In this document: piece by piece, positions 34,296 to 45,333 of the stretch
Position numbering within the stretch: position 1 is the first letter of the stretch
Layout of the letters: the number at the start of each line of letters is the position of its first letter
The notes under the pieces: generated by a model
What the model was told of the DNA's origin: nothing
Database searches by the model: none
The model's input: only the letters and a program-made list of their open reading frames with translations
Translations under genes and position numbers: made by a program
Source of the DNA: a virus
Length of the DNA stretch: 64,000 bases
Reading direction: 5' to 3' (one strand)
IMG/VR virus record: IMGVR_UViG_3300023184_000030
Span: 62,001 to 126,000 of that record

Positions 34296-34826
34296 TTAAA
34301 AAACCCTTTTATTATTTTTCTTAACTGTGTAATTAACAAAATTCTTAATCTGTTTGGTCGTTTCAACCAGACCAAAAACTACTCTATTAAAATATCCAAG
34401 TATTCCTTCTTTAATAGGATCTCTATAAAGAACATTGGATAAAGATCTTTTTAATAACTGATCCCTATAATCAAATCCATTATAAAGATTGTCATTAAAG
34501 CTATCCCTTATGTCATAGATATTCTGGGTAGGATCGAATTCATAATACCTTCTTTCTACTGGAATTTTTGGCATTAATTTCATAATAGTTTTATATTCCA
34601 ACATATCAGAGCAAGGTGCATATTTATATTCACCCAAACCACTAGAAAGAATCCTTCTATATCCAGAGCATCCTATATTATAAGATCTATCCGAAGCAAG
34701 TTCTGCTGTTGGGTATAAATCCTTAGGATCATAGAAAGTAGTGTTATCAGTTCTTGGTTTTATCCCAGCAACTGTATAGTTTACTCCTTTCTTAAGGTCA
34801 GGGAAAAATGGTGAATAGTTATCCAT
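34296..34826 (-). CDS. Unknown protein (176 aa) between gp6-like and gp7-like wedge genes
   Basis: Starts MDNYSPFFPDLKKGVNYTVA and is rich in Tyr, Arg, Asp and Lys, with a basic C terminus (FVNYTVKKNNKRVF). Its ATG shares a base with the stop of the gp6-like gene, and it ends 3 bp before the gp7-like gene, so translation is probably coupled. Position suggests a wedge component (T4 gp53 would be a functional candidate), but I see no sequence match to gp53. Confidence 0.6.
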   Translation of the reverse strand: MDNYSPFFPDLKKGVNYTVAGIKPRTDNTTFYDPKDLYPTAELASDRSYNIGCSGYRRILSSGLGEYKYAPCSDMLEYKTIMKLMPKIPVERRYYEFDPTQNIYDIRDSFNDNLYNGFDYRDQLLKRSLSNVLYRDPIKEGILGYFNRVVFGLVETTKQIKNFVNYTVKKNNKRVF

Positions 34827-36550
34827 TAGTTATTGTTTATAAGTTGAGATTTCATTTCAGCATTTAGAGACATGTTGAAATTCACAGGTATTACTTTAGC
34901 AATACTTACATTAAGAGCTCCCGGTTTACCCTGAACTATTCCCTGCTGGTAATTTGTACCGTTTCTATCGCTCCATCCTCCTCTTAAAACAACCAGATCA
35001 TTTCTACCTATTATAATATCACCAAACTCATTAAGGCCAACCTGTTGTTGTAATTGTGCATCCGAAACGTTGGTTAAACTTCTAAGTAAAGTTTGATTTT
35101 TTTCATTAGCTTCTCCGACAAAATAGAAAGAAACCGAATCTACTCCTTCAACGGATTCCACTAAAGCTATTATATCTGATTTAGGAATGAAATCTCTCCT
35201 TTTTAGATTTAACATATACTCGGAAACTTTCTTTCTTATAGCTTGTCTTATCGTCTCAGGATCATATCCTTCAAACATAGTAATCACCACGTTTGCCACG
35301 TATCTTTTAATTTGGGGTTCTACTATTCTAACAACAGTTGTTGCAATCATAGACCCAGAATCCTCAATAAGATTTATTACCTTAGTTTTCTGATTAGTAG
35401 TAAGTAAAAAGTCTGATACTGGGATATCGAAATAATCCTCATTAGAAGAAATATTTAAAGTTATATCAGGGACTAGGAAAATATAAACTACGTTATCATC
35501 GTCCAGATAATCATCATCAAATGTAGAAAATGCTTGGATCTGCGAAAATATCCCAAGTTTATTTAGAAAAATCTCATAATTTTGCGCATTAGCAAAAACG
35601 AAAGATCTACTGGTCTTTGGTGCAACCAATCTTATCAGATTTGTAGTTTCTGGATTTGTTCCGAAAGAAGGATCTATAGAATTAAGTGCATCTATGTAGT
35701 TATTTAGATCTACCTCAGCTCCAAATAAATCTGTCCCGCTGCTAACAAATTTATAGGTTAGTGGTTTTTCCTTAGTTGAAACAGCGTTTCCTGATCCTCC
35801 TGAGGTCTGAAGATATTCTATTCTTATTCTCGATCCTCTTTGTGGAACCATACCAAAATTAGAATTACCAAAATAAACATCAAGGCCTTCCTGTATTCCT
35901 GTTCTGACTATAAAGCCCTTTCCGTTTAAAGGAATATCATATAGAGAATCGTATCTTCTCCATTTTTCCTCATTAACATAAACATCAACATAGAACTGAT
36001 CAAGGTAAGCTCCAGAAGAAGACGGAAGATTAAAACTTTGTAAAACGCTTCCTGTTCCAGTTACCACAGAACTGATAAAATCCCCCTGTGCTACTTTAAC
36101 TCTAAGAGGGCTTGGACTACCTCCAAGTTGAATTGTTACCCTTGAAGATCCAAAAACTAATGAATATAATTTACCGTTTTCCTGACACCTTATTTGAGCA
36201 TGGTTGTTTATTATAACCGCACTTCCACCTATATCTGATTGTCTTCTATTCCAAGATAGAGTTACCTCTCCTTGTGCAGTACTTGCTCTCCCTGGATCAT
36301 AACCAGCTATTCTAGCTAAACTCCTAACAGAATAATCTCTGGTTGCTTGCTCTATATTTAATTCAGTTATCGAATCCTCTATGAAATATAGAATCATCTG
36401 CGAAAGGTTCTGTAAAACGAAAAGTATCTGTCCCCAAGCAGATGCTACGGTAAAAAGATTTGTCGTTTGGTTATACGTGTCTTGCAGGAAAGAAAACGTG
36501 TCGTTTAATAGACCGTTAATTAGGATATTATTCTTCTTAAAAATATTCAT
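34826..36550 (-). CDS. 6: Baseplate wedge protein, gp6/P2 gpJ-like
   Basis: The 574-aa product has the gpJ/gp6 hallmark at about 225-255: VYFGNSNFGMVPQRGSRIRI, then EYLQTSGGSGN, where the core of the family reads as a G-x-G-x-x-P-x-x-G turn followed by a Y-x-x-x-G-G-x-G-N strand. An N-terminal helical region with a stretch of aliphatic residues (ILFVLQNLSQMILYFIEDSI) precedes it. gp6 dimers form the inner ring of the baseplate and change shape at contraction. It lies directly downstream of the gp25-like gene, the usual order in contractile tails. T4 gp6 is 660 aa. Confidence 0.85.
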   Translation of the reverse strand: MNIFKKNNILINGLLNDTFSFLQDTYNQTTNLFTVASAWGQILFVLQNLSQMILYFIEDSITELNIEQATRDYSVRSLARIAGYDPGRASTAQGEVTLSWNRRQSDIGGSAVIINNHAQIRCQENGKLYSLVFGSSRVTIQLGGSPSPLRVKVAQGDFISSVVTGTGSVLQSFNLPSSSGAYLDQFYVDVYVNEEKWRRYDSLYDIPLNGKGFIVRTGIQEGLDVYFGNSNFGMVPQRGSRIRIEYLQTSGGSGNAVSTKEKPLTYKFVSSGTDLFGAEVDLNNYIDALNSIDPSFGTNPETTNLIRLVAPKTSRSFVFANAQNYEIFLNKLGIFSQIQAFSTFDDDYLDDDNVVYIFLVPDITLNISSNEDYFDIPVSDFLLTTNQKTKVINLIEDSGSMIATTVVRIVEPQIKRYVANVVITMFEGYDPETIRQAIRKKVSEYMLNLKRRDFIPKSDIIALVESVEGVDSVSFYFVGEANEKNQTLLRSLTNVSDAQLQQQVGLNEFGDIIIGRNDLVVLRGGWSDRNGTNYQQGIVQGKPGALNVSIAKVIPVNFNMSLNAEMKSQLINNN

Positions 36551-36559
36551 TTCTGTATA

Positions 36560-36931
36560 TTAGGTTATTCTTAGTGTAACTAGAGGACTTAATCCTCCAT
36601 TTACTGGTATTTTAAAATCTATTGTTGCTATATCTCTTTCTGTTCCTACATAAAATTTAAGATCATAAGAGCCTCCAAGTTTTCTAAAAAGAGGGATATA
36701 TGTTTTTAAAAATAGATCCAATTCTTTCCTTATGCTAGATTCGGAAAGATTTAAGCTAAATATAAGCTCCTCCAGATTAAGCCCAAATTTAGTGTCACCA
36801 AGTACCTCTCCCTTATTGGTAAGAAGCATCATTTTTAATTGGCCTACACAAATCTCCACCGGATCGGTTGTTTCGATCTGGAATGGGTTATAGCTTGGGT
36901 CTAGTGGATCCCTGTTATAAATCTCTCTCAT
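36560..36931 (-). CDS. 25: Baseplate wedge protein, gp25-like
   Basis: The 123-aa product is close to T4 gp25 (132 aa) in size. The signature GEVLGDTKFGLNLEELIF (41-58) matches the family's G-E-x-x-x-x-x-x-F-G-[CN]-x-L-x-x-x-[IL]-F motif. gp25 sits at the sheath-baseplate junction and links wedge to sheath. It is the first gene of the gp25-gp6-X-gp7 unit, with a promoter-like octamer 17 nt upstream and a terminator just beyond that. Confidence 0.85.
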   Translation of the reverse strand: MREIYNRDPLDPSYNPFQIETTDPVEICVGQLKMMLLTNKGEVLGDTKFGLNLEELIFSLNLSESSIRKELDLFLKTYIPLFRKLGGSYDLKFYVGTERDIATIDFKIPVNGGLSPLVTLRIT

Positions 36932-36947
36932 AGAAAATCTTTCATAT

Positions 36948-36955
36948 TATATATC
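36948..36955 (-). promoter_or_regulatory. Late-promoter-like octamer GATATATA
   Basis: On the minus strand it is 17 nt upstream of the gp25-like ATG and just after the terminator at 36988-37017, where a new transcription unit would be expected to start. Confidence 0.55.
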
Positions 36956-36983: not shown

Positions 36984-37018
36984 AAAAAACCTCTCGCTTT
37001 TTTAAAAACGAGAGGTTT
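36984..37018 (-). terminator. Rho-independent terminator after the neck-like gene
   Basis: On the minus strand AACCTCTCG pairs with CGAGAGGTT across a 12-nt A/T loop and is followed by TTTTTTG. It lies 21 nt after the stop of the 37038-37814 gene. Confidence 0.85.
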
Positions 37019-37037: not shown

Positions 37038-37814
37038 TTAATTCCATTGAAGGAAGTAGCTAGGTGTGTTTTCTCCGTTAATCATATCCATAACTTCCTG
37101 CAATTCTGTTTCCCCAGTGGTTCTGATATCAGAAGCGTTTATCTGAACTCCTCCAGGTAGATTGTAGGTAAATACAGAAAGCATGTTTGCTAGTGCTATT
37201 TTAGATTTAGCTATACAATATCTAACAAAAAGCTCATCTGCAAAAAGATCATCATCATTTAGTGCAACAAAGCATCTAACAGATACATCAGTACCACCAA
37301 CACCAAATCCCTGGGCAAGTTGACCTTTACCAGATCTATTAGGATCTCTACCAGAAATGGTTAATTTTTTGCTATTTTTGTTCCACTTAAAAGCAAAAGT
37401 CTCTAATAAATATGCTTTAGCTAAATCGAAATATGAATACATGACAGTACGATAAACTAAATTATCTCCGACAAAAGGTGAAAGTAATAATTCAGACCCA
37501 AGTAATTTAGAATCTCCAAAATCTTTATCCGGATTACCCGATATTCCTGATCCACCAACTTCTCTAACATCATATACACTAATGATAGATTCTGGTAATT
37601 TTATTTGTCTGGTTGCTCTAAATTCAGGATGTCTAAATATTTCATTCTTCAGGATGAAAACTCTATCCTCGACAGCATATTGATAATTGTCAAAAAACCA
37701 TGCTTTGGCTCTTTTGATTATTCTTTTTGTTTCTTGCTGATTTAGATTATATGGAAGGGCACAGCTAAAAGAAAGTGCGTCTTCTATTTCTTGTATTAAT
37801 TCTTCTTCTGTCAT
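37038..37814 (-). CDS. Putative neck/head-completion protein (258 aa)
   Basis: Starts MTEEELIQEIEDALSFSCAL with a helical N terminus containing KRIIKRAKAWFFDNYQYA, then a beta-rich middle (LPESIISVYDVREVGG) and a mixed C terminus. This helix-then-sandwich layout and length recall T4-type neck proteins gp13/gp14 (309 and 256 aa). The evidence is layout and position next to structural genes rather than residue identity. The gene ends at a strong terminator. Confidence 0.45.
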   Translation of the reverse strand: MTEEELIQEIEDALSFSCALPYNLNQQETKRIIKRAKAWFFDNYQYAVEDRVFILKNEIFRHPEFRATRQIKLPESIISVYDVREVGGSGISGNPDKDFGDSKLLGSELLLSPFVGDNLVYRTVMYSYFDLAKAYLLETFAFKWNKNSKKLTISGRDPNRSGKGQLAQGFGVGGTDVSVRCFVALNDDDLFADELFVRYCIAKSKIALANMLSVFTYNLPGGVQINASDIRTTGETELQEVMDMINGENTPSYFLQWN

Positions 37815-37830: not shown

Positions 37831-39237
37831 TTAAAAGTTCATGTTACCGAATCTTGGATTATTGTATCTATCATTTAGATCCTTTAATCTCTTGTCGGTA
37901 ACGAATCTTTCTTTTCTGAAATCTTCCCAGCCTTTAACTTTCAATGTCTCCTTACTTACGTCGGCGTTTTCACCAATCTCACCGGCTCTTAAAACTCCAT
38001 CCTTTATCTTACAATTGATACTTTTACCTTCGCAATCAATAAAGCAATCTTCAAGTTCGTTTCCGAAATCAACAACACAATCTTTAATCTTCGAAGATGT
38101 AACTGTTGTGTCATTAACTATATAGCATTCCTCTATCGATGATTTTTTTATCTTAGAGCTGTAGATATTACAGTTTTTGATGACACCATTCTTTATATCA
38201 CAAAGTATAAGATCAATGTCTTTAAGTTCCAAAGCCTCTCTACTTCTAGCGTCTTTTAATTGACATCTTCCTGTGGTAGTGTCATAATTAAAATATCCTG
38301 ACGTAACGTTACCCTCGACGATTATATCGAATATTTTATCTCTGATAACTGACCAGTATGTTTTTATATTCTCGTCCCATCCTTTAAGATCTACAAAGAT
38401 ATGAAAATCTGGGTAATTTCTAAAGAAGAAATCAGGATCACTAAAAGATCTAACGACCTTAGTATACTGATTCATCATACTTTGAAGCTTAGCAAGATCC
38501 TCTTTTGAGTATCCTATTATTCTATGACTAAGCAAATCATAAAGGTAAAGAATTACATAATCTATGACCTCTCTTATGTCTTTGCTTTTCTTCTGGTAAT
38601 CTCTATTACCGAGATATCTAAATTCTAAATACCCCTTTGGTATTTTTGTGAAGTTTACTCCATAGTATTTGTCCTCAGGAACTTTAAACATTCGGGGATC
38701 AATGGTAGTTAGATTTTCAACCATAGAAAATCTATTTCTAGGAACTACTCTTTTTATAGATTTGGCGTAAACGTTTTTAGACCTATTACCAAATTTTGAA
38801 TAGATAAAATTCTCATCAAGACCTAGTATAAATTTTAGTTTATCTAGATTTTCTATCTTATCCTTAACGTCTTTTCTGAATTTATCATAGCTAACTGAGA
38901 ACTGGAATGCGCATCTATCTGTCGTCCAACCATTATCATCTATCCAATTAAGAACTTTAATTAATATGGTAATAGCTTCATTATAAGGTAATGGTCCAGT
39001 AATGAACTCCATCATCTTGCTTCCCCCTGAATAATCAGGCTCTAGCTTACATGTGCTGGCATCAACAACAATATTAGAGTGGTACCTTTCTGATACCACT
39101 ACCTTTTTCTTAATCAGCTTAGAAAGAGATTCAGCTGCCCTGCCCTTTAGCATATTAGTATAAAATTCAAATTCGAATCCTATTACAGATGAGCTAAGAG
39201 CATGGAGCTTATCAAAATGTGTTCTGTTATCGGTCAT
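37831..39237 (-). CDS. Amidoligase-fold (glutamine synthetase-like) enzyme with C-terminal repeat tail
   Basis: Residues 1-310 look like an amidoligase (COOH-NH2 ligase of the glutamine-synthetase superfamily). GFEFEFY (20-26) carries the paired Glu of the first ATP/Mg strand, MMEFITGPLPY (75-85) is the second conserved strand, and YLEFRYLG (203-210) is the late LEFR motif. Where many members have H-x-H, this one has AFQFSVS (110-116). Residues about 343-415 are short repeats (CDIKNGVIKNCNIYSS, SSKIKKSSIEECYIV) typical of a beta-helix. Such enzymes join an amine to a carboxylate using ATP. The substrate is unknown. It overlaps the S1-like gene by 11 bp. Confidence 0.65.
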   Translation of the reverse strand: MTDNRTHFDKLHALSSSVIGFEFEFYTNMLKGRAAESLSKLIKKKVVVSERYHSNIVVDASTCKLEPDYSGGSKMMEFITGPLPYNEAITILIKVLNWIDDNGWTTDRCAFQFSVSYDKFRKDVKDKIENLDKLKFILGLDENFIYSKFGNRSKNVYAKSIKRVVPRNRFSMVENLTTIDPRMFKVPEDKYYGVNFTKIPKGYLEFRYLGNRDYQKKSKDIREVIDYVILYLYDLLSHRIIGYSKEDLAKLQSMMNQYTKVVRSFSDPDFFFRNYPDFHIFVDLKGWDENIKTYWSVIRDKIFDIIVEGNVTSGYFNYDTTTGRCQLKDARSREALELKDIDLILCDIKNGVIKNCNIYSSKIKKSSIEECYIVNDTTVTSSKIKDCVVDFGNELEDCFIDCEGKSINCKIKDGVLRAGEIGENADVSKETLKVKGWEDFRKERFVTDKRLKDLNDRYNNPRFGNMNF

Positions 39238-40417
39238 TTACCGGCTCTGCGAAAATTTTTCCGCTAGCAGGTTCAACTTCGTAAACCGTAACTAGTAGAT
39301 CATCCCCAGGTTTAAGATTTTTGGTATTTTTACCAATTCTCTCCTGAGGGATAAGAGCCATAAGACCAAATTCTACAAGATCAATAAGAATACCATTCTT
39401 TCTCTTGTGTTTAATTTTTGCTTCAATTGGCTCGCATGTTCCGTCCTTAATTTGTTTATCAAGATCGTGTATAATAACGTTTCTTTCTAGAGGTTTCTCT
39501 AGAGTTAATGTTAATCTGTTATTATCTTTAATTTCCTTAACGTAGAATTCAATCTCATCACCAGGATTTACTCCAGTGATCGAGTTATCCTCGCTGAATT
39601 CAGTTTTATGGATAAGTCCTGTGTAAACCTCTTCCCATTCAACAAATACGCCAAAGTCGCTTGTTCCAGTAACATATCCTTTATATTTCTTAGTAAGATC
39701 CAATTCCTGAATCTTGCTTTCCATAATTTTATTAAGATATTTCTTGTAAGAAACGATAAAGATGTCTTTAGGCTCAACGTAGCCCTCAATCATTACATGT
39801 AATTCTTTTCCGATATAAGATTCAAAATCTGTGATTCTATTGGCAGCAGCCAAAGATCCAGGTAAGAAACATTTAATTCCTGATAGATCAACAATGTATC
39901 CACCTTTATTAATGCTCTCAATTTTAACTCTGTATGCGCTAGACTCCTTCTTAATCTGTTCGAATAATTCAACTCTAAGACTGTGGATATAATATTCGAC
40001 AACCGAACCTGTGTATATCCCGCCGCTTTTTCTAATCTTAGCCTGTAATACATCGCCAGGATTGAAAGATATGCCAGTTATTTTTAATTTGTCAGCGTCC
40101 TTTCTCTCCTTCTTAAGATCTATGTAAATTGTTTGCCCTGTGCTTGTCTGTGCTAGTGCCTCAGTCTCGGTAACACTTACAACCTTACATGGGTAAACGT
40201 TACCTTCGTCAAGATCTTTAGATAAACTCGTATTTTCAGGAACGTCTCTGAAATAATTATTATAAGCATCTAAAAGTTCCTGAGCATAAGGCTCATGACA
40301 ATAAATTTTTGACCCACTAGGAATCCTTTTTAGTTTAGTGTTTGGTTTTCTGCCATTCTCTACTTCCCAGTTAAAATCGTCTGGATTGTGTGTTTTAGTT
40401 GATGATAAATCAATCAT
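39227..40417 (-). CDS. S1-like RNA-binding protein with four S1/OB domains
   Basis: The 396-aa product has four S1-type OB domains, at about 71-141, 159-226, 243-308 and 327-393. The third is the clearest: YKGYVTGTSDFGVFVEWEEV, then TGLIHKTEFS and NPGDEIEFYVKEI. The second has GGYIVDLSGIKCFLPGS as in bacterial ribosomal protein S1. S1 brings mRNA to the 30S subunit, and in T4-type and RNA phages host S1 has extra roles. Here the gene has its own promoter-like site 33 nt upstream and is followed by the amidoligase gene. A role in recruiting SD-less phage mRNA is inference. Confidence 0.8.
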   Translation of the reverse strand: MIDLSSTKTHNPDDFNWEVENGRKPNTKLKRIPSGSKIYCHEPYAQELLDAYNNYFRDVPENTSLSKDLDEGNVYPCKVVSVTETEALAQTSTGQTIYIDLKKERKDADKLKITGISFNPGDVLQAKIRKSGGIYTGSVVEYYIHSLRVELFEQIKKESSAYRVKIESINKGGYIVDLSGIKCFLPGSLAAANRITDFESYIGKELHVMIEGYVEPKDIFIVSYKKYLNKIMESKIQELDLTKKYKGYVTGTSDFGVFVEWEEVYTGLIHKTEFSEDNSITGVNPGDEIEFYVKEIKDNNRLTLTLEKPLERNVIIHDLDKQIKDGTCEPIEAKIKHKRKNGILIDLVEFGLMALIPQERIGKNTKNLKPGDDLLVTVYEVEPASGKIFAEPVNDR

Positions 40418-40449: not shown

Positions 40450-40457
40450 TATATATC
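40450..40457 (-). promoter_or_regulatory. Late-promoter-like octamer GATATATA
   Basis: On the minus strand it is 33 nt upstream of the S1-like ATG, in the 73-bp gap after the 40491-41951 gene. It is embedded in a small inverted repeat CTTAG-TATATAT-CTAAG. Confidence 0.5.
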
Positions 40458-40490
40458 TAAGCTTAAGTTCCTTTAAAAGTCCGTAATATT

Positions 40491-41951
40491 TTAAAAAACT
40501 ATGGGAACAAAACCTACCATAGGAACAGGTCCAGCGGTGGTTGGTATACCGCCACTATAAATGAGCTTAAATTCAAGCATATTGGCTGCAAACGAGAAAG
40601 CTAGAGCAGTAGCAACTGCAGTAGCACTAATTGGTTTCTCAGGTAAAGTTTTGAAAAGTTTTCCTGTATTTAATGCTCTTCTAAGATAACCAGCAAGTCT
40701 TTTTCTGCTCCCGTAATAAAGGGGAACATAGAAACCACCTAAAGGTGCGGTAATTATACAGGGCGGTATTGGGGGTGCTGCTGAAAATGGTTGTTGTAGT
40801 GTGGAAGCCCAATAAGCTAAAATTCCGGTAGCCATGATAATATAAGGGTCATTAACGTCGTCTTTCTCTGAAGCTTTCTTTTCCGCATCTGCTAATTCCT
40901 GGATGTACCTTTGTTTTAGTTCAACAAATCTCTTTGCCTCTTCACCATATGCTGCAGCTTTTGTTGCATTTATACCAGCCAAAGAATTCTCTAGACCTTG
41001 CTTATATGTGCTATAAGTAGATGAGCTCTTTGACAGATAATTTAACTGCTGTATATTGAACGATCCGATATTTCCCCCGAAGAGCTTATCTAGATTATCA
41101 TTAGTTAATATATTACTTACTTTAAATGTTTCGTCTATAGCCAGGTTTACTATATAATTATCCTGAGTTAGCCTTTTAAAGTATCTGCTGTTATAATTTT
41201 TATCATAGGTGAACTTAGTTATAAAATCTCTTACCATATAATCAGGTATTCTCTGTGGATCATTAATGTGCTCCTCTTGAAACAATTCCTTAGAAATATT
41301 GACATCCGGAAGATTCTTAAAATCTTCTATTTTTTTACTTCCGCTAGTTCCTATGCTCTTTATGATTTCTAGAGCTTTGTTTGAAATCTCTGTTGTCCAA
41401 TCGGGATAACTAGGATCAAATCTCAGTACATATAGCCATTGGATATAATCTGATGTTCCGTCATATTTCTGGACTATTCTTCTTGCTATCTCTAAAACCT
41501 GCTGGCTTCTAGTAGTCGGAAAATTTGGAAATTGCGAGAAGAATAACGAATAGGTAAAGTCCGGTATAGTTTCTCCCCTTGACTCTGCCCAAGCTAAAAA
41601 CTCAAGATCAAACTTATCAAGATATGCGTCAGTATTAACAGAGGGAATTGGATCTTTTAAATCCGCATATTTAGGATCCTTTATTTTATCTGCTAATGTT
41701 GGTGATCTTTCTTCCTCCAGTAATTTAAAAGCTTTTTTAAATGCGGTTTTTATAATTTCCGAATCACCCTGCTGATGTAAGTTACCAAAAGGTGTTTGTG
41801 CCTTTCCCGATATAGCCAAAACGTATTGATTTGCTAAATATGTTGCAAAATCATCTACATCTTGTCCTGGCTTATCATAAGCCCCCTGAATTGATTGCAA
41901 AGAAAGCTTAATAGAAACATTACTTATAAAAGAACCCCAATTTGCTGGCAT
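40491..41951 (-). CDS. Virion protein of unknown role (486 aa) with hydrophobic C terminus
   Basis: Starts MPANWGSFISNVSIKLSLQS. The body is helical and charged, including a likely coiled coil (EEAKRFVELKQRYIQELADA, about 335-355). The last 110 residues are hydrophobic with Pro/Gly turns (APPIPPCIITAPLGGFYVPL, then AFSFAANMLEF, and a final GPVPMVGFVPIVF). It lies 2 bp after the spike gene. The hydrophobic end suggests contact with a membrane or a buried baseplate interface. Function not recognised. Confidence 0.6.
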   Translation of the reverse strand: MPANWGSFISNVSIKLSLQSIQGAYDKPGQDVDDFATYLANQYVLAISGKAQTPFGNLHQQGDSEIIKTAFKKAFKLLEEERSPTLADKIKDPKYADLKDPIPSVNTDAYLDKFDLEFLAWAESRGETIPDFTYSLFFSQFPNFPTTRSQQVLEIARRIVQKYDGTSDYIQWLYVLRFDPSYPDWTTEISNKALEIIKSIGTSGSKKIEDFKNLPDVNISKELFQEEHINDPQRIPDYMVRDFITKFTYDKNYNSRYFKRLTQDNYIVNLAIDETFKVSNILTNDNLDKLFGGNIGSFNIQQLNYLSKSSSTYSTYKQGLENSLAGINATKAAAYGEEAKRFVELKQRYIQELADAEKKASEKDDVNDPYIIMATGILAYWASTLQQPFSAAPPIPPCIITAPLGGFYVPLYYGSRKRLAGYLRRALNTGKLFKTLPEKPISATAVATALAFSFAANMLEFKLIYSGGIPTTAGPVPMVGFVPIVF

Positions 41952-41953
41952 TG

Positions 41954-42655
41954 TTATTTGGTTTTAGATACTTGACTTAAGTGCTGAGGATCGGTCATAG
42001 GTACAACAGGTACACCAGAAGGACCTACCCCAGTAGGATGTGTATGGGTATTAAAGAAAGTTAGAAAGGTGCTTCCTAAAACTAGCTTTTCGATAGCGGC
42101 TTCTCCCAGCTCTATATTTTGGGATTTTACGATTACCTTTTGCTTTGCGCCTTGTTTTTCCATTCTGACCTCATCGTCATTTAACTTTAAAACTATTCTG
42201 AGCTTTTCCTTATTAGTACCAGCATTCTGCGTGTCTAGCTGAATTGTAGCATCGCCTAGCTGAAAAACAAGCCCTTTTTTTCTTGTATAAAGCATCTTCA
42301 GAGTTCCTGGTTGAGCCTCCGAGTCATAAATTAAAGCTTGTGTACCCTCATATGAATTATCCTCCTTGAGTTCTGTCATAAGATCCTTAGAAATCTCCTT
42401 GATATAGTGATAGCTTAACTTATAATAATTATTATCCTCAAAATGAACTGCTACTACAGACCCTACTCTAGGTATGGTTATGTTACCCCCGCCAAAACCT
42501 CCACCAAAAGATAAACCTGCAATCTGCTCAGCCCACGGTAAATCATCCGAAGGAAGACCATCAAATACACCAAAAACTTCTATTCTTGCTCTTCCTTGAT
42601 AAAGTGGATCTTTTATATCAACCACCTTACCGAGGTACGTTTTTTCACTTGGCAT
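41954..42655 (-). CDS. Baseplate central spike protein, gp5/gpV OB-fold type without lysozyme
   Basis: The 233-aa product starts with the OB domain of Phage_base_V/gp5-N proteins: YLGKVVDIKDPLYQGRARIE (7-26), then LPWAEQ (39-44) and PRVGSVVAVHFEDNN (62-76). A beta-rich stalk follows (GLVFQLGDATIQLD, KVIVKSQNIELGEAA), and the tip has THTHPTGVGPSGVP (203-216), typical of gpV-type spikes. T4 gp5 has a lysozyme domain between OB and stalk; none is present here. It lies next to tube/hub-type genes, as expected for the puncturing device. Confidence 0.8.
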   Translation of the reverse strand: MPSEKTYLGKVVDIKDPLYQGRARIEVFGVFDGLPSDDLPWAEQIAGLSFGGGFGGGNITIPRVGSVVAVHFEDNNYYKLSYHYIKEISKDLMTELKEDNSYEGTQALIYDSEAQPGTLKMLYTRKKGLVFQLGDATIQLDTQNAGTNKEKLRIVLKLNDDEVRMEKQGAKQKVIVKSQNIELGEAAIEKLVLGSTFLTFFNTHTHPTGVGPSGVPVVPMTDPQHLSQVSKTK

Positions 42656-42657
42656 AA

Positions 42658-45333
42658 TTATTCAAATTTTTCAGGGCTGGGATTCATTCCGCCTGTACTA
42701 ATGTTATACTTATCTTTTGGTTTTAAATTTCCCATATCTAAAGGTTTTTCAACCATAAAATCTCCATTTGTGTTAGGATAAGCTTTTCCTATATCTCCTC
42801 TTGATTTTTGACTCTTCATTTCAGATTTTTGGTAAACAGCATTAGGTTTTGTAGCAAATGAGTTTACAGCATCTCTAAGTTCACCGTTGGAAGATATTTT
42901 CTGAGTTTGTGCATAAACTGGGTTTGCTTCTATAGCTGTTTGATTAGCACTTTTTACAGCATCAGGATAAACCTTTTGTTCGGCAAGGGGTATTGAATTT
43001 TGATTAGGAGGGTAGACCTCCTCTGATATTTGTGGATATACTCTGTCAGGTACACCTAGATCAGATCCAGGAACGTTGGTGTAAGCATCACCTATCGGAT
43101 CAACGTAAACCCTATCTGGTACGCCTAAAGCAGTTCCTGGTACATCAGCATAAACGTCTCCGCCCGGAGCTGGATATACCCTATCAGGTACACCTAGAGC
43201 AGTTCCAGGTGAAGCGTCATAAACATCCCCGCCTGGAGCAGGATATACTCTATCAGGTACACCTAAAGCAGTTCCTGGTACATCAACATAAACGTCTCCT
43301 CCCGGAGCTGGATATACCCTATCAGGTACACCTAAAGCAGTTCCTGGTACATCAGCATAAACGTCTCCTCCCGGAGCTGGATATACCCTATCGGGAACAC
43401 CTAAATCTGTCCCGGGTACGCTCGTGTAAGCGTCTCCGCCCGGAGCGGGATAAACTCTATCAGGAGCACCTAAATCGGGTCCAGGTACAGTGGCATAAAC
43501 ATCTCCCCCTGGAGCTGGATATACCCTATCAGGTACACCTAGAGCAGCTCCAGGAACATCAGCATAAACGTCTCCCCCTGGAGCGGGATAAATCCTATCT
43601 GGCACACCTAAATCGGGTCCAGGTACAGTGGCGTAAACATCTCCACCTGGAGCTGGATATACCCTATCAGGTACACCCAGTGCAGTTCCTGGCACATCAT
43701 TATAAACGTCTCCACCAGGAGCTGTATAAACCCTATCAGGAACACCTAAATCAGGTCCAGGTACGTTTGCGTACGAGTCTCCACCAGGAGCGGGATAAAC
43801 TCTACCCTGAATACCGGATACATTACTAACACCTAAATCTTGTCCAGGCACTTTACCGTATACGTCACCTGATACTTTTCCGTAAACCCTTTGCGGTGGA
43901 CCACCTAAACCTGTTGTCTGTGGATTTGGTAGAATTGTCTCTCTAAATCCAGCATTAACATTACCTAGCTGATCCAAGTATTGCTGGGCAGTATTAAATG
44001 ATAGGTTACCTAAAACTTGAGAAGGATTTAAGCTATAAATATTACCGAGAATCAATTTATCTAATCCTGCGACATTAGGTTTTATGTAGGTTGCAACACC
44101 TTCGTTAATAAGGTCATTTAATGAATTACTTAAAAAGTTAGTTAATAACTCACCACCTATAGAAAGAATATCATCTCCTAAATTACTAGGATTTTTTTGA
44201 ACTGATGATCTAGCACCATCCCAGCTATCTCCAAGAATTAATGGTTTACCGTCTTGTCTTATATTAGGATATTGACTTCTCGTTCTAACCTTACCTACTA
44301 TGATTCTGAATTTTTGTCCTACCGGGGTTGCTGTATCTGAACCTGCACTGATCTCGCTAGGTATAGGGGTGCTTTCGCTAAAATCAAATTCACAATTTCT
44401 GCACTCAAAAACTATAACCGGTTTTACACCTGATTGATCTTGTTGATTTCTTAACATAGACAAATCATTATCAACACCAGCTCCATTTAAAACGTTTCCA
44501 ACAAATGAATTAAATCCGCTTGCAGGATTCGTGTTTGATGATCCCCCATTATATTCACTATTCTGCTCCCCCACATCTCCCAGGTTTGTCCCTGGATTAT
44601 TTCCAGATCCTAGCATAGTTGCTAAATTGTCTATAGTAGTCAAAGCAGCGGATGCACCAATAAGTCTAGACGTCTTAAAGAAATTACGTATCTCAGAAAC
44701 GAAAATATACATAGTAAATTTCCTAAGGTTTCTCGGGACTAATTCCCTCATGTTATCATAATCAAAAGTTGCCTGATTATAGAGATCTGCAAGAGCGGTC
44801 ATTCTTAAATTTAATGACTCTAATGTGGTAAACTCTAAAGCTTTACCAGCAGTTCTCTGTGGATTAAAATCAGAATCTGATTCAACAGCAAACCCCTTTC
44901 TTGATACTAAAGGTAATTGATCTAATCCTGATATTGTTTGTAAAAACCAAGGTGAATTATTAAGTAAGTCAGTTAAGCTGTTCTTAAACTGTATAAGCAT
45001 ATCTGAACGTTTTCCTCCCCTAGGAAATTCTGCCTCTCTTTCTCTCAGATATGATGTTGCAGAATAGAAATTAATCGCTCCGTTTGGTGTAGTTCTATAC
45101 GAATACTGGGGTTGCCCAAAAGGATTAGATGAGCTAAATCCACTAGGAATATATGACTCCTCTCTAAAAAGAGGACTAGGAGGAAGACCATCATCATCTC
45201 TTATGGGGAGGGTACCGAAATCTATCACTATTTTAAATCCAAGATATGTTGGATCCTCGTAATTTCCTTGTTTGGATAGCTTAAAGCCTTTTAAAAATAG
45301 ACTCCTTAATTGATCTGTTGCTCCTAATGACAT
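42658..45333 (-). CDS. Baseplate/tube-like virion protein with 23-residue tandem repeats (891 aa)
   Basis: The N-terminal half (YLGFKIVIDFGTLP; LRKFTMYIFVSEIRNFF; VIVFECRNCEFDFSES) has strand patterns of tail-tube-type folds with a loop-rich insert. Residues 511-763 are eleven 23-residue repeats of the type RVYPAPGGDVY-x-x-VPG-x-x-LGVPD, with a degenerate copy before and a partial one after. The C-terminal 130 residues are Lys/Asn/Ser-rich and probably disordered. The repeat would form an extended Pro/Gly/Tyr-rich rod or tether. The neighbouring spike and hub genes place it in the baseplate centre. It could alternatively be a fibre-anchoring protein. Confidence 0.6.
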   Translation of the reverse strand: MSLGATDQLRSLFLKGFKLSKQGNYEDPTYLGFKIVIDFGTLPIRDDDGLPPSPLFREESYIPSGFSSSNPFGQPQYSYRTTPNGAINFYSATSYLREREAEFPRGGKRSDMLIQFKNSLTDLLNNSPWFLQTISGLDQLPLVSRKGFAVESDSDFNPQRTAGKALEFTTLESLNLRMTALADLYNQATFDYDNMRELVPRNLRKFTMYIFVSEIRNFFKTSRLIGASAALTTIDNLATMLGSGNNPGTNLGDVGEQNSEYNGGSSNTNPASGFNSFVGNVLNGAGVDNDLSMLRNQQDQSGVKPVIVFECRNCEFDFSESTPIPSEISAGSDTATPVGQKFRIIVGKVRTRSQYPNIRQDGKPLILGDSWDGARSSVQKNPSNLGDDILSIGGELLTNFLSNSLNDLINEGVATYIKPNVAGLDKLILGNIYSLNPSQVLGNLSFNTAQQYLDQLGNVNAGFRETILPNPQTTGLGGPPQRVYGKVSGDVYGKVPGQDLGVSNVSGIQGRVYPAPGGDSYANVPGPDLGVPDRVYTAPGGDVYNDVPGTALGVPDRVYPAPGGDVYATVPGPDLGVPDRIYPAPGGDVYADVPGAALGVPDRVYPAPGGDVYATVPGPDLGAPDRVYPAPGGDAYTSVPGTDLGVPDRVYPAPGGDVYADVPGTALGVPDRVYPAPGGDVYVDVPGTALGVPDRVYPAPGGDVYDASPGTALGVPDRVYPAPGGDVYADVPGTALGVPDRVYVDPIGDAYTNVPGSDLGVPDRVYPQISEEVYPPNQNSIPLAEQKVYPDAVKSANQTAIEANPVYAQTQKISSNGELRDAVNSFATKPNAVYQKSEMKSQKSRGDIGKAYPNTNGDFMVEKPLDMGNLKPKDKYNISTGGMNPSPEKFE
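43045..43803. repeat. Eleven tandem 69-bp coding repeats
   Basis: Each 69-bp unit encodes 23 residues in frame in the 42658-45333 gene. The unit contains two Tyr, two PG/GG turns and a LGVPDR junction. Copies differ mainly at four or five fixed positions (for example YADVPGTA, YATVPGPD, YVDVPGTA), so the array has both purified and freshly duplicated units. Confidence 0.95.

What the first reader, a model, noticed from the sequence alone, without database searches (positions are those of the whole stretch)
39227..40417. Phage-encoded S1-like protein with four OB domains inside the tail operon
Phage copies of S1 are unusual. In Bacteroidota mRNAs lack Shine-Dalgarno sequences, and genes here start after A/T-rich leaders without them. 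A phage S1 could favour phage mRNA on the ribosome, compete with host S1, or act in replication, transcription or antitermination. Its own promoter-like site and location in the middle of late structural genes suggest expression in the late phase.
Basis: partly seen in the sequence, partly recalled or inferred. Interest (0 to 1): 0.75.

Follow-up and report, generated by a model that had tools for sequence, protein, structure and literature searches.

The report
Late-expressed phage version of ribosomal S1
A large freshwater-type phage, probably of Bacteroidota bacteria, carries a shortened copy of the ribosomal protein that feeds messenger RNA to the ribosome, switched on by what looks like the phage's own late promoter among its tail genes, which suggests that it retunes the host ribosome while virus particles are being built.

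Summary
Window 39227-40417 (minus strand) encodes a 396-aa protein with four S1/OB domains, collinear with OB1-OB4 of bacterial ribosomal protein bS1; OB5-6 are missing. The single-copy family occurs in hundreds of viral contigs, Lak phages and the 462-735 kb phages, and forms one clade. In most of them it sits between baseplate hub and neck/wedge genes and is translationally coupled to an amidoligase-like gene (143 of 145 loci). A GATATATA box, shown here to be a promoter-like element of this phage group, precedes S1 in 64 of 73 genes checked; a conserved terminator closes the unit S1-amidoligase-neck protein. The N-terminus carries the F-x-W motif plus L...Y helix of Bacteroidia bS1; the OB2 mRNA pocket and OB3 RNA-binding residues are kept. 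Most likely it docks on the host 30S subunit and promotes initiation on SD-less phage late mRNAs (inferred; no binding data). Phage S1 proteins and this idea were published in 2020, so it is a new variant of a known kind. New here: defined truncated family, late-type promoter, host-type N-terminus, coupled amidoligase. It does not reach the bS1 equivalog cut-off, so I call it bS1-like, not bS1.

The parts
39227..40417 (-). Phage bS1-like protein, 396 aa, four S1/OB domains
40250..40381 (-). N-terminal segment, residues 13-56: F-x-W motif (F15, W17) and helix 45-55 with L48/Y52, as in Bacteroidia bS1
   Evidence: alignment and counts; helix in model
39998..40216 (-). OB1 (about residues 68-140)
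   Evidence: strands; collinear with bS1 OB1
39740..39940 (-). OB2 (about residues 160-226) with K171, Y174, F184 and the CFLPGS motif
39494..39694 (-). OB3 (about residues 242-308), the strongest S1 domain, with F255, F258, H270, R301
39230..39433 (-). OB4 (about residues 329-396), divergent
   Evidence: (S1_2, E 0.001)
40450..40457 (-). GATATATA promoter-like box, 32 nt upstream of the S1 start
40463..40472 (-). AGGAACTTAA, extra element upstream of the S1 box, conserved in closer relatives
37831..39237 (-). Downstream partner, 468 aa: amidoligase/glutamine-synthetase-like domain plus pentapeptide-type beta-helix; overlaps the S1 stop
37038..37814 (-). Neck / head-tail adaptor protein, third gene of the unit
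   Evidence: phrog_211 3.5e-07
36987..37018 (-). Terminator-like hairpin (14 bp, then T run) that ends the unit; hairpin kept with different sequence in four relatives
36948..36955 (-). Next GATATATA box, 16 nt upstream of the gp25-like gene
34826..36931 (-). Baseplate wedge genes (gp6-like, gp25-like)
   Evidence: phrog_219 2.4e-32, phrog_120 8e-4
41954..42655 (-). Baseplate hub gp5-like protein upstream
   Evidence: phrog_430 1.2e-16

Best explanation
It is a phage-encoded, shortened relative of ribosomal protein bS1 (OB1-OB4 only) made late in infection. Shown: homology and domain order, single-copy conservation, purifying selection, own GATATATA box, SD-less mRNAs, Bacteroidia-type N-terminus, conserved OB2/OB3 RNA-contact residues. 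Inferred: the N-terminal helix and OB1 dock it on uS2 at the mRNA exit cleft of the host 30S subunit, in place of or beside the loosely bound host bS1; OB2-OB4 then hold and unfold the 5' ends of the phage's A-rich, SD-less late mRNAs so that structural proteins are made in preference to host proteins.
For: Collinear with bS1 OB1-OB4. In E. coli, OB1-3 are the minimal active S1, OB4 stimulates and OB5-6 are nearly dispensable (PMC3858243); the phage keeps OB1-4 and Lak phages OB1-3. The OB2 mRNA pocket of E. coli (K117, F120, F130; PMC10123108) maps to K171, Y174, F184; in 25 phage rows aromatic at 174 and F at 184 in all, K at 171 in 16. OB3 F255, F258, H270, R301 kept in 24, 25, 23 and 16 (K in the other 9) rows. 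The F-x-W motif occurs in 13/13 rows of the Bacteroidia-type bS1 clade, in none of the other ten bS1 rows apart from one chance VEW in an overlong frame, and in 19/25 phage rows; the helix matches host L...Y rather than E. coli F...F. 38/39 starts lack SD. The promoter box precedes structural units. Five phages that carry this S1 also encode bS21, whose phage version is expressed late with structural genes (PMC9723584); bS21 braces bS1 on the 30S (PMC10123108).
Against: No ribosome- or RNA-binding data exist. E. coli K43, which enters the uS2 zinc pocket, is G in the window's clade (15 of 25 rows; K in 6), while it is K in 47/47 host rows, so docking may differ. It fails every bS1 equivalog cut-off. 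Some large phages have the gene outside the tail cluster. A late role rests on position and promoter, not on expression data.
Confidence: 0.55

Rival explanations
1. Non-ribosomal RNA-binding protein: it binds phage RNA off the ribosome as a chaperone, stabiliser, transcription or antitermination cofactor, or nuclease cofactor.
For: S1 domains are common in RNA-binding proteins outside the ribosome (PMC6375957). OB3 RNA-binding residues are the best kept part, while the uS2 anchor K43 is lost in the window's clade. Host S1 serves Qbeta replicase and T4 RegB (PMC13157829).
Against: OB1 and OB2, the ribosome-side domains of bS1, are retained in all 25 phage rows with the FLPGS-type motif, and the N-terminus is host bS1-like; a free RNA binder would not need them.
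Confidence: 0.2
2. Translation shut-off factor: a dominant-negative S1 that takes the host bS1 site and blocks host (or all) translation.
For: Truncated E. coli S1 still binds ribosomes; forms with fewer than three domains are lethal (PMC3858243).
Against: It keeps OB3 and OB4 with RNA-contact residues, i.e. the set sufficient for initiation; a late-type promoter beside structural genes is an odd time to stop translation.
Confidence: 0.12
3. Virion or assembly protein: a baseplate/neck component or assembly chaperone that has kept an S1 fold.
For: Synteny between hub and neck/wedge genes holds down to about 30% identity; in 634-735 kb phages the gene follows large probable structural genes.
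Against: Seven of seven Lak and 462-735 kb genomes keep S1 although its place differs; nucleic-acid-contact residues and the host-like N-terminus are conserved; Lak phages lack OB4, not expected for a fixed structural part.
Confidence: 0.1

Closest known systems
Ribosomal protein bS1 of Bacteroidia (e.g. Flavobacterium-like PDB 9zcd_A)
   Same: OB1-OB4 order, OB2 FLPGS motif, N-terminal F-x-W motif and L...Y helix
   Different: 396 aa against about 580-670; no OB5-6 or C-terminal tail; about 30% identity; long separate branch (2.4 changes per column); uS2-pocket lysine lost in the window's clade
Phage S1 proteins of huge phages (Al-Shayeb 2020, PMC7162821) and phage entries annotated 30S ribosomal protein S1
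   Same: S1-repeat proteins in huge phages, several with predicted Bacteroidetes hosts; same hijacking proposal; BFVD hits at 25-28% identity
   Different: That paper states up to six S1 domains in a few genomes; in the text searched, no family definition, tail-cluster synteny, promoter or amidoligase coupling
Phage-encoded bS21 of Bacteroidetes phages (PMC9723584)
   Same: Ribosomal protein at the mRNA exit site, encoded beside structural genes, expressed late
   Different: Different protein; beside capsid/terminase genes; the window's record shows no bS21 (173 kb fragment), but the 348 kb relative and four huge phages do
bS1 of jumbo cyanophage PhiMa05 (PMC13157829)
   Same: Phage-encoded bS1
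   Different: PhiMa05 proteins group with Vampirovibrio host proteins; here one divergent phage-only clade, no recent host donor

Membership tests
S1 RNA-binding domain superfamily (PF00575) | Score over the Pfam gathering cut-off | tested here: met
   64.8 bits against 22, residues 244-304; all 17 rows of A3 match at E <= 0.01
Ribosomal protein bS1 | Tandem OB1-OB4 in bS1 order, with the OB2 FLPGS motif | tested here: met
   Profile 57-381 aligns to E. coli bS1 13-344; alignment
Ribosomal protein bS1 | Score over the NCBIfam equivalog cut-off | tested here: not met
   TIGR00717 84.5 against 577; four-domain model NF005208 83.3 against 368
Ribosomal protein bS1 | Groups inside cellular bS1 in a tree | tested here: inconclusive
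   One phage clade on a long branch; union with the Bacteroidia-type clade not rejected, AU p = 0.10
Ribosomal protein bS1 | Binds the 30S subunit through uS2 and binds mRNA | not testable with these tools
   Only residue conservation: helix kept, K43 position changed
T4-type late promoter (works-like) | Single AT-rich -10 box, no -35 element, before late genes | tested here: met
   GATATATA, 9 of 10 window copies in the 2.4% non-coding DNA; no conserved -35 in 23 non-S1 sites
T4-type late promoter (works-like) | Read by a phage late sigma factor (gp55 type), late timing | not tested
   No sigma search and no expression data
Amidoligase_2 (PF12224), partner gene | Match to the family and a glutamine-synthetase-like fold | tested here: inconclusive
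   23 of 26 members match, best 2.8e-06, but the window protein scores 15.1 against cut-off 22; fold hits to glutamine synthetase and YbdK at 3e-4 to 6e-4

The most novel reading that the evidence does not exclude
S1 and its translationally coupled amidoligase-pentapeptide partner form a late module that builds a specialised ribosome: the amidoligase would attach amino acids or peptides to the phage S1 or to platform proteins (as RimK does to bS6), switching the Bacteroidota 30S, which ignores Shine-Dalgarno sequences, to phage late mRNAs.
Probability: 0.12. Interest if true: 0.85.

Novelty: new variant of a known kind. Interest (0 to 1): 0.58.

Why it matters
Bacteroidota ribosomes hide their anti-Shine-Dalgarno sequence, so how mRNAs are chosen there is open. 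A widespread phage version of the mRNA-delivery protein, cut down to the domains sufficient in E. coli and tied to a late-type promoter, would offer a natural tool to test mRNA selection by S1 and would extend the bS21 late-translation idea to a second protein at the same site of the ribosome.

Tried and rejected
Simple sigma-70 scan: 46 sites against 56.8 in shuffles, uninformative. PHROGs holds no family for this protein: window protein 0.23, only scattered weak hits in relatives. Recent transfer from a host: rejected, the phage sequences form one 100/100 clade on a long branch. Descent from Bacteroidota bS1: not resolved, neither supported nor rejected by the OB1-4 tree. Fixed link to the amidoligase: rejected as universal, since in four 634-735 kb phages it lies far from S1 and in two Lak genomes it was not found. 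bS21 in the same record: not found, but the record is a fragment. tRNAs in the record: none found. NCBIfam DNA polymerase epsilon hit of the partner gene (6e-4, far under its cut-off): taken as spurious.

Full report
Observation. The ORF at 39227-40417 is real, on the minus strand, 396 aa, ATG start. Pfam recognises one S1 domain over its cut-off and a second weakly, but a profile of 21 phage relatives aligns to E. coli bS1 from OB1 to OB4 in order (7.1e-47), and the AlphaFold2 model shows an N-terminal helix and four OB barrels (mean pLDDT 79.7; pTM 0.53, as expected for beads on a string). The best fold match is bS1 in a 30S mRNA delivery complex; the best viral matches are proteins named S1.

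Distribution. One scan found 74 loci and a second at least 578 stretches in IMG/VR, a lower bound. Lak phages and four 634-735 kb phages carry it too, one copy per record in 14 of 14 records. All 25 phage sequences form one clade (100/100) on a branch of about 2.4 changes per column, so this is an old phage family rather than a recent host gene. It is under purifying selection (dN/dS 0.06-0.09).

Context. Order hub gp5 - variable gene - S1 - amidoligase-like gene - neck protein - gp25 - gp6 is kept down to about 30% identity. The amidoligase-like gene follows S1 directly in 143 of 145 loci in two partly overlapping sets, mostly with overlapping stop and start. In Lak and the 634-735 kb phages S1 lies elsewhere, in the latter just after large probable structural genes. 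Tail-cluster loci lie both at the base and in the window's part of the phage clade, which suggests that the tail position is ancestral (inference; the root is uncertain).

Promoter. Comparing leaders of S1 relatives showed a conserved GATATATA box. In the window it occurs ten times, all on the coding strand, nine times in the 2.4% non-coding DNA; the window sites with an assigned start lie 16-32 nt upstream of it (binomial p about 3e-14). In the relatives L002-L072, 137 of 144 copies lie within 60 nt upstream of a start. No -35 element is conserved. It precedes S1 in 64 of 73 S1 genes. A hairpin with a T run ends the unit after the neck gene and is kept, with different sequence, in L004, L008, L011 and L016, each followed by the gp25 box. 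So S1 is the first gene of a late-type transcription unit. That these boxes are late promoters is inferred from the genes they precede and from their likeness to T4 late promoters (general knowledge).

Mechanism. E. coli bS1 needs OB1-3 for 30S binding, mRNA binding and unfolding; OB4 stimulates; OB5-6 matter little (PMC3858243). The phage protein keeps exactly OB1-4, Lak OB1-3. The OB2 residues that hold mRNA in E. coli (PMC10123108) and the OB3 RNA-contact positions are kept in most phage rows. The N-terminus carries F-x-W, which among cellular bS1 rows sampled marks the Bacteroidia-type clade (13 of 13), and the helix has L and Y as in those hosts. The uS2-pocket lysine of E. coli is not kept in the window's clade, a real point against simple mimicry. 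Phage mRNAs here lack SD (38 of 39), like Bacteroidota mRNAs (PMC6847099, abstract), and F. johnsoniae bS1 doubles initiation amplitude on an SD-less mRNA (PMC9976891). Hence the preferred model: late docking on the host 30S and preferential initiation of phage mRNAs. Binding is not shown.

Partner. The neighbour at 37831-39237 has an amidoligase/glutamine-synthetase-like domain and a pentapeptide-type beta-helix. Its substrate is unknown; that it modifies S1 or ribosomal proteins is speculation (novel case).

What is known. Al-Shayeb et al. [quoted passage not shown] Mizuno et al. 2019 caution that the S1 domain is not exclusive to ribosomal proteins. Chen et al. 2022 tied phage bS21 to late replication in freshwater Bacteroidetes phages. 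This finding is a new variant of that kind. Because it misses every bS1 equivalog cut-off, I file it as a bS1-like phage family, not as bS1.

Limits. Host assignment to Bacteroidota is inferred from the bS1-like N-terminus, SD-less leaders, and related phages with known or predicted Bacteroidota hosts. The record is a 173 kb fragment. IMG/VR loci include near-identical contigs, and the two scans share many contigs, so counts are not independent events.

Noticed in passing
window 1545, 9313, 23297, 30081, 36948, 40450, 53002, 54899, 61890 (minus strand): GATATATA box upstream of genes and gene units: probable late-type promoter of this phage group, single box without -35 element, also in relatives (137 of 144 copies just upstream of starts).
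   Followed up: yes
window 37831-39237: Amidoligase-like domain fused to a pentapeptide-type beta-helix, nearly always directly downstream of S1, without a PHROGs match in the window protein.
   Followed up: partly
window 42658-45333: Protein with about a dozen near-identical repeats (VYPAPGGDVYADVPGTALGVPDR) between hub genes; highly repetitive tail-cluster protein.
   Followed up: no
window 40491-41951: Gene between hub gp5 and S1 is the most variable of the cluster (26-83% identity) and undetected in many relatives: a variable spot inside an otherwise fixed order.
   Followed up: partly
window 40463-40472: AGGAACTTAA upstream of the S1 box only; unique in the window, conserved in closer relatives: possible S1-specific regulatory element.
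   Followed up: partly
L180-L183: Some genomes of the Bacteroidota phylum sample encode a second S1-like protein of about 505-521 aa, a separate clade from both bS1 and phage S1.
   Followed up: partly
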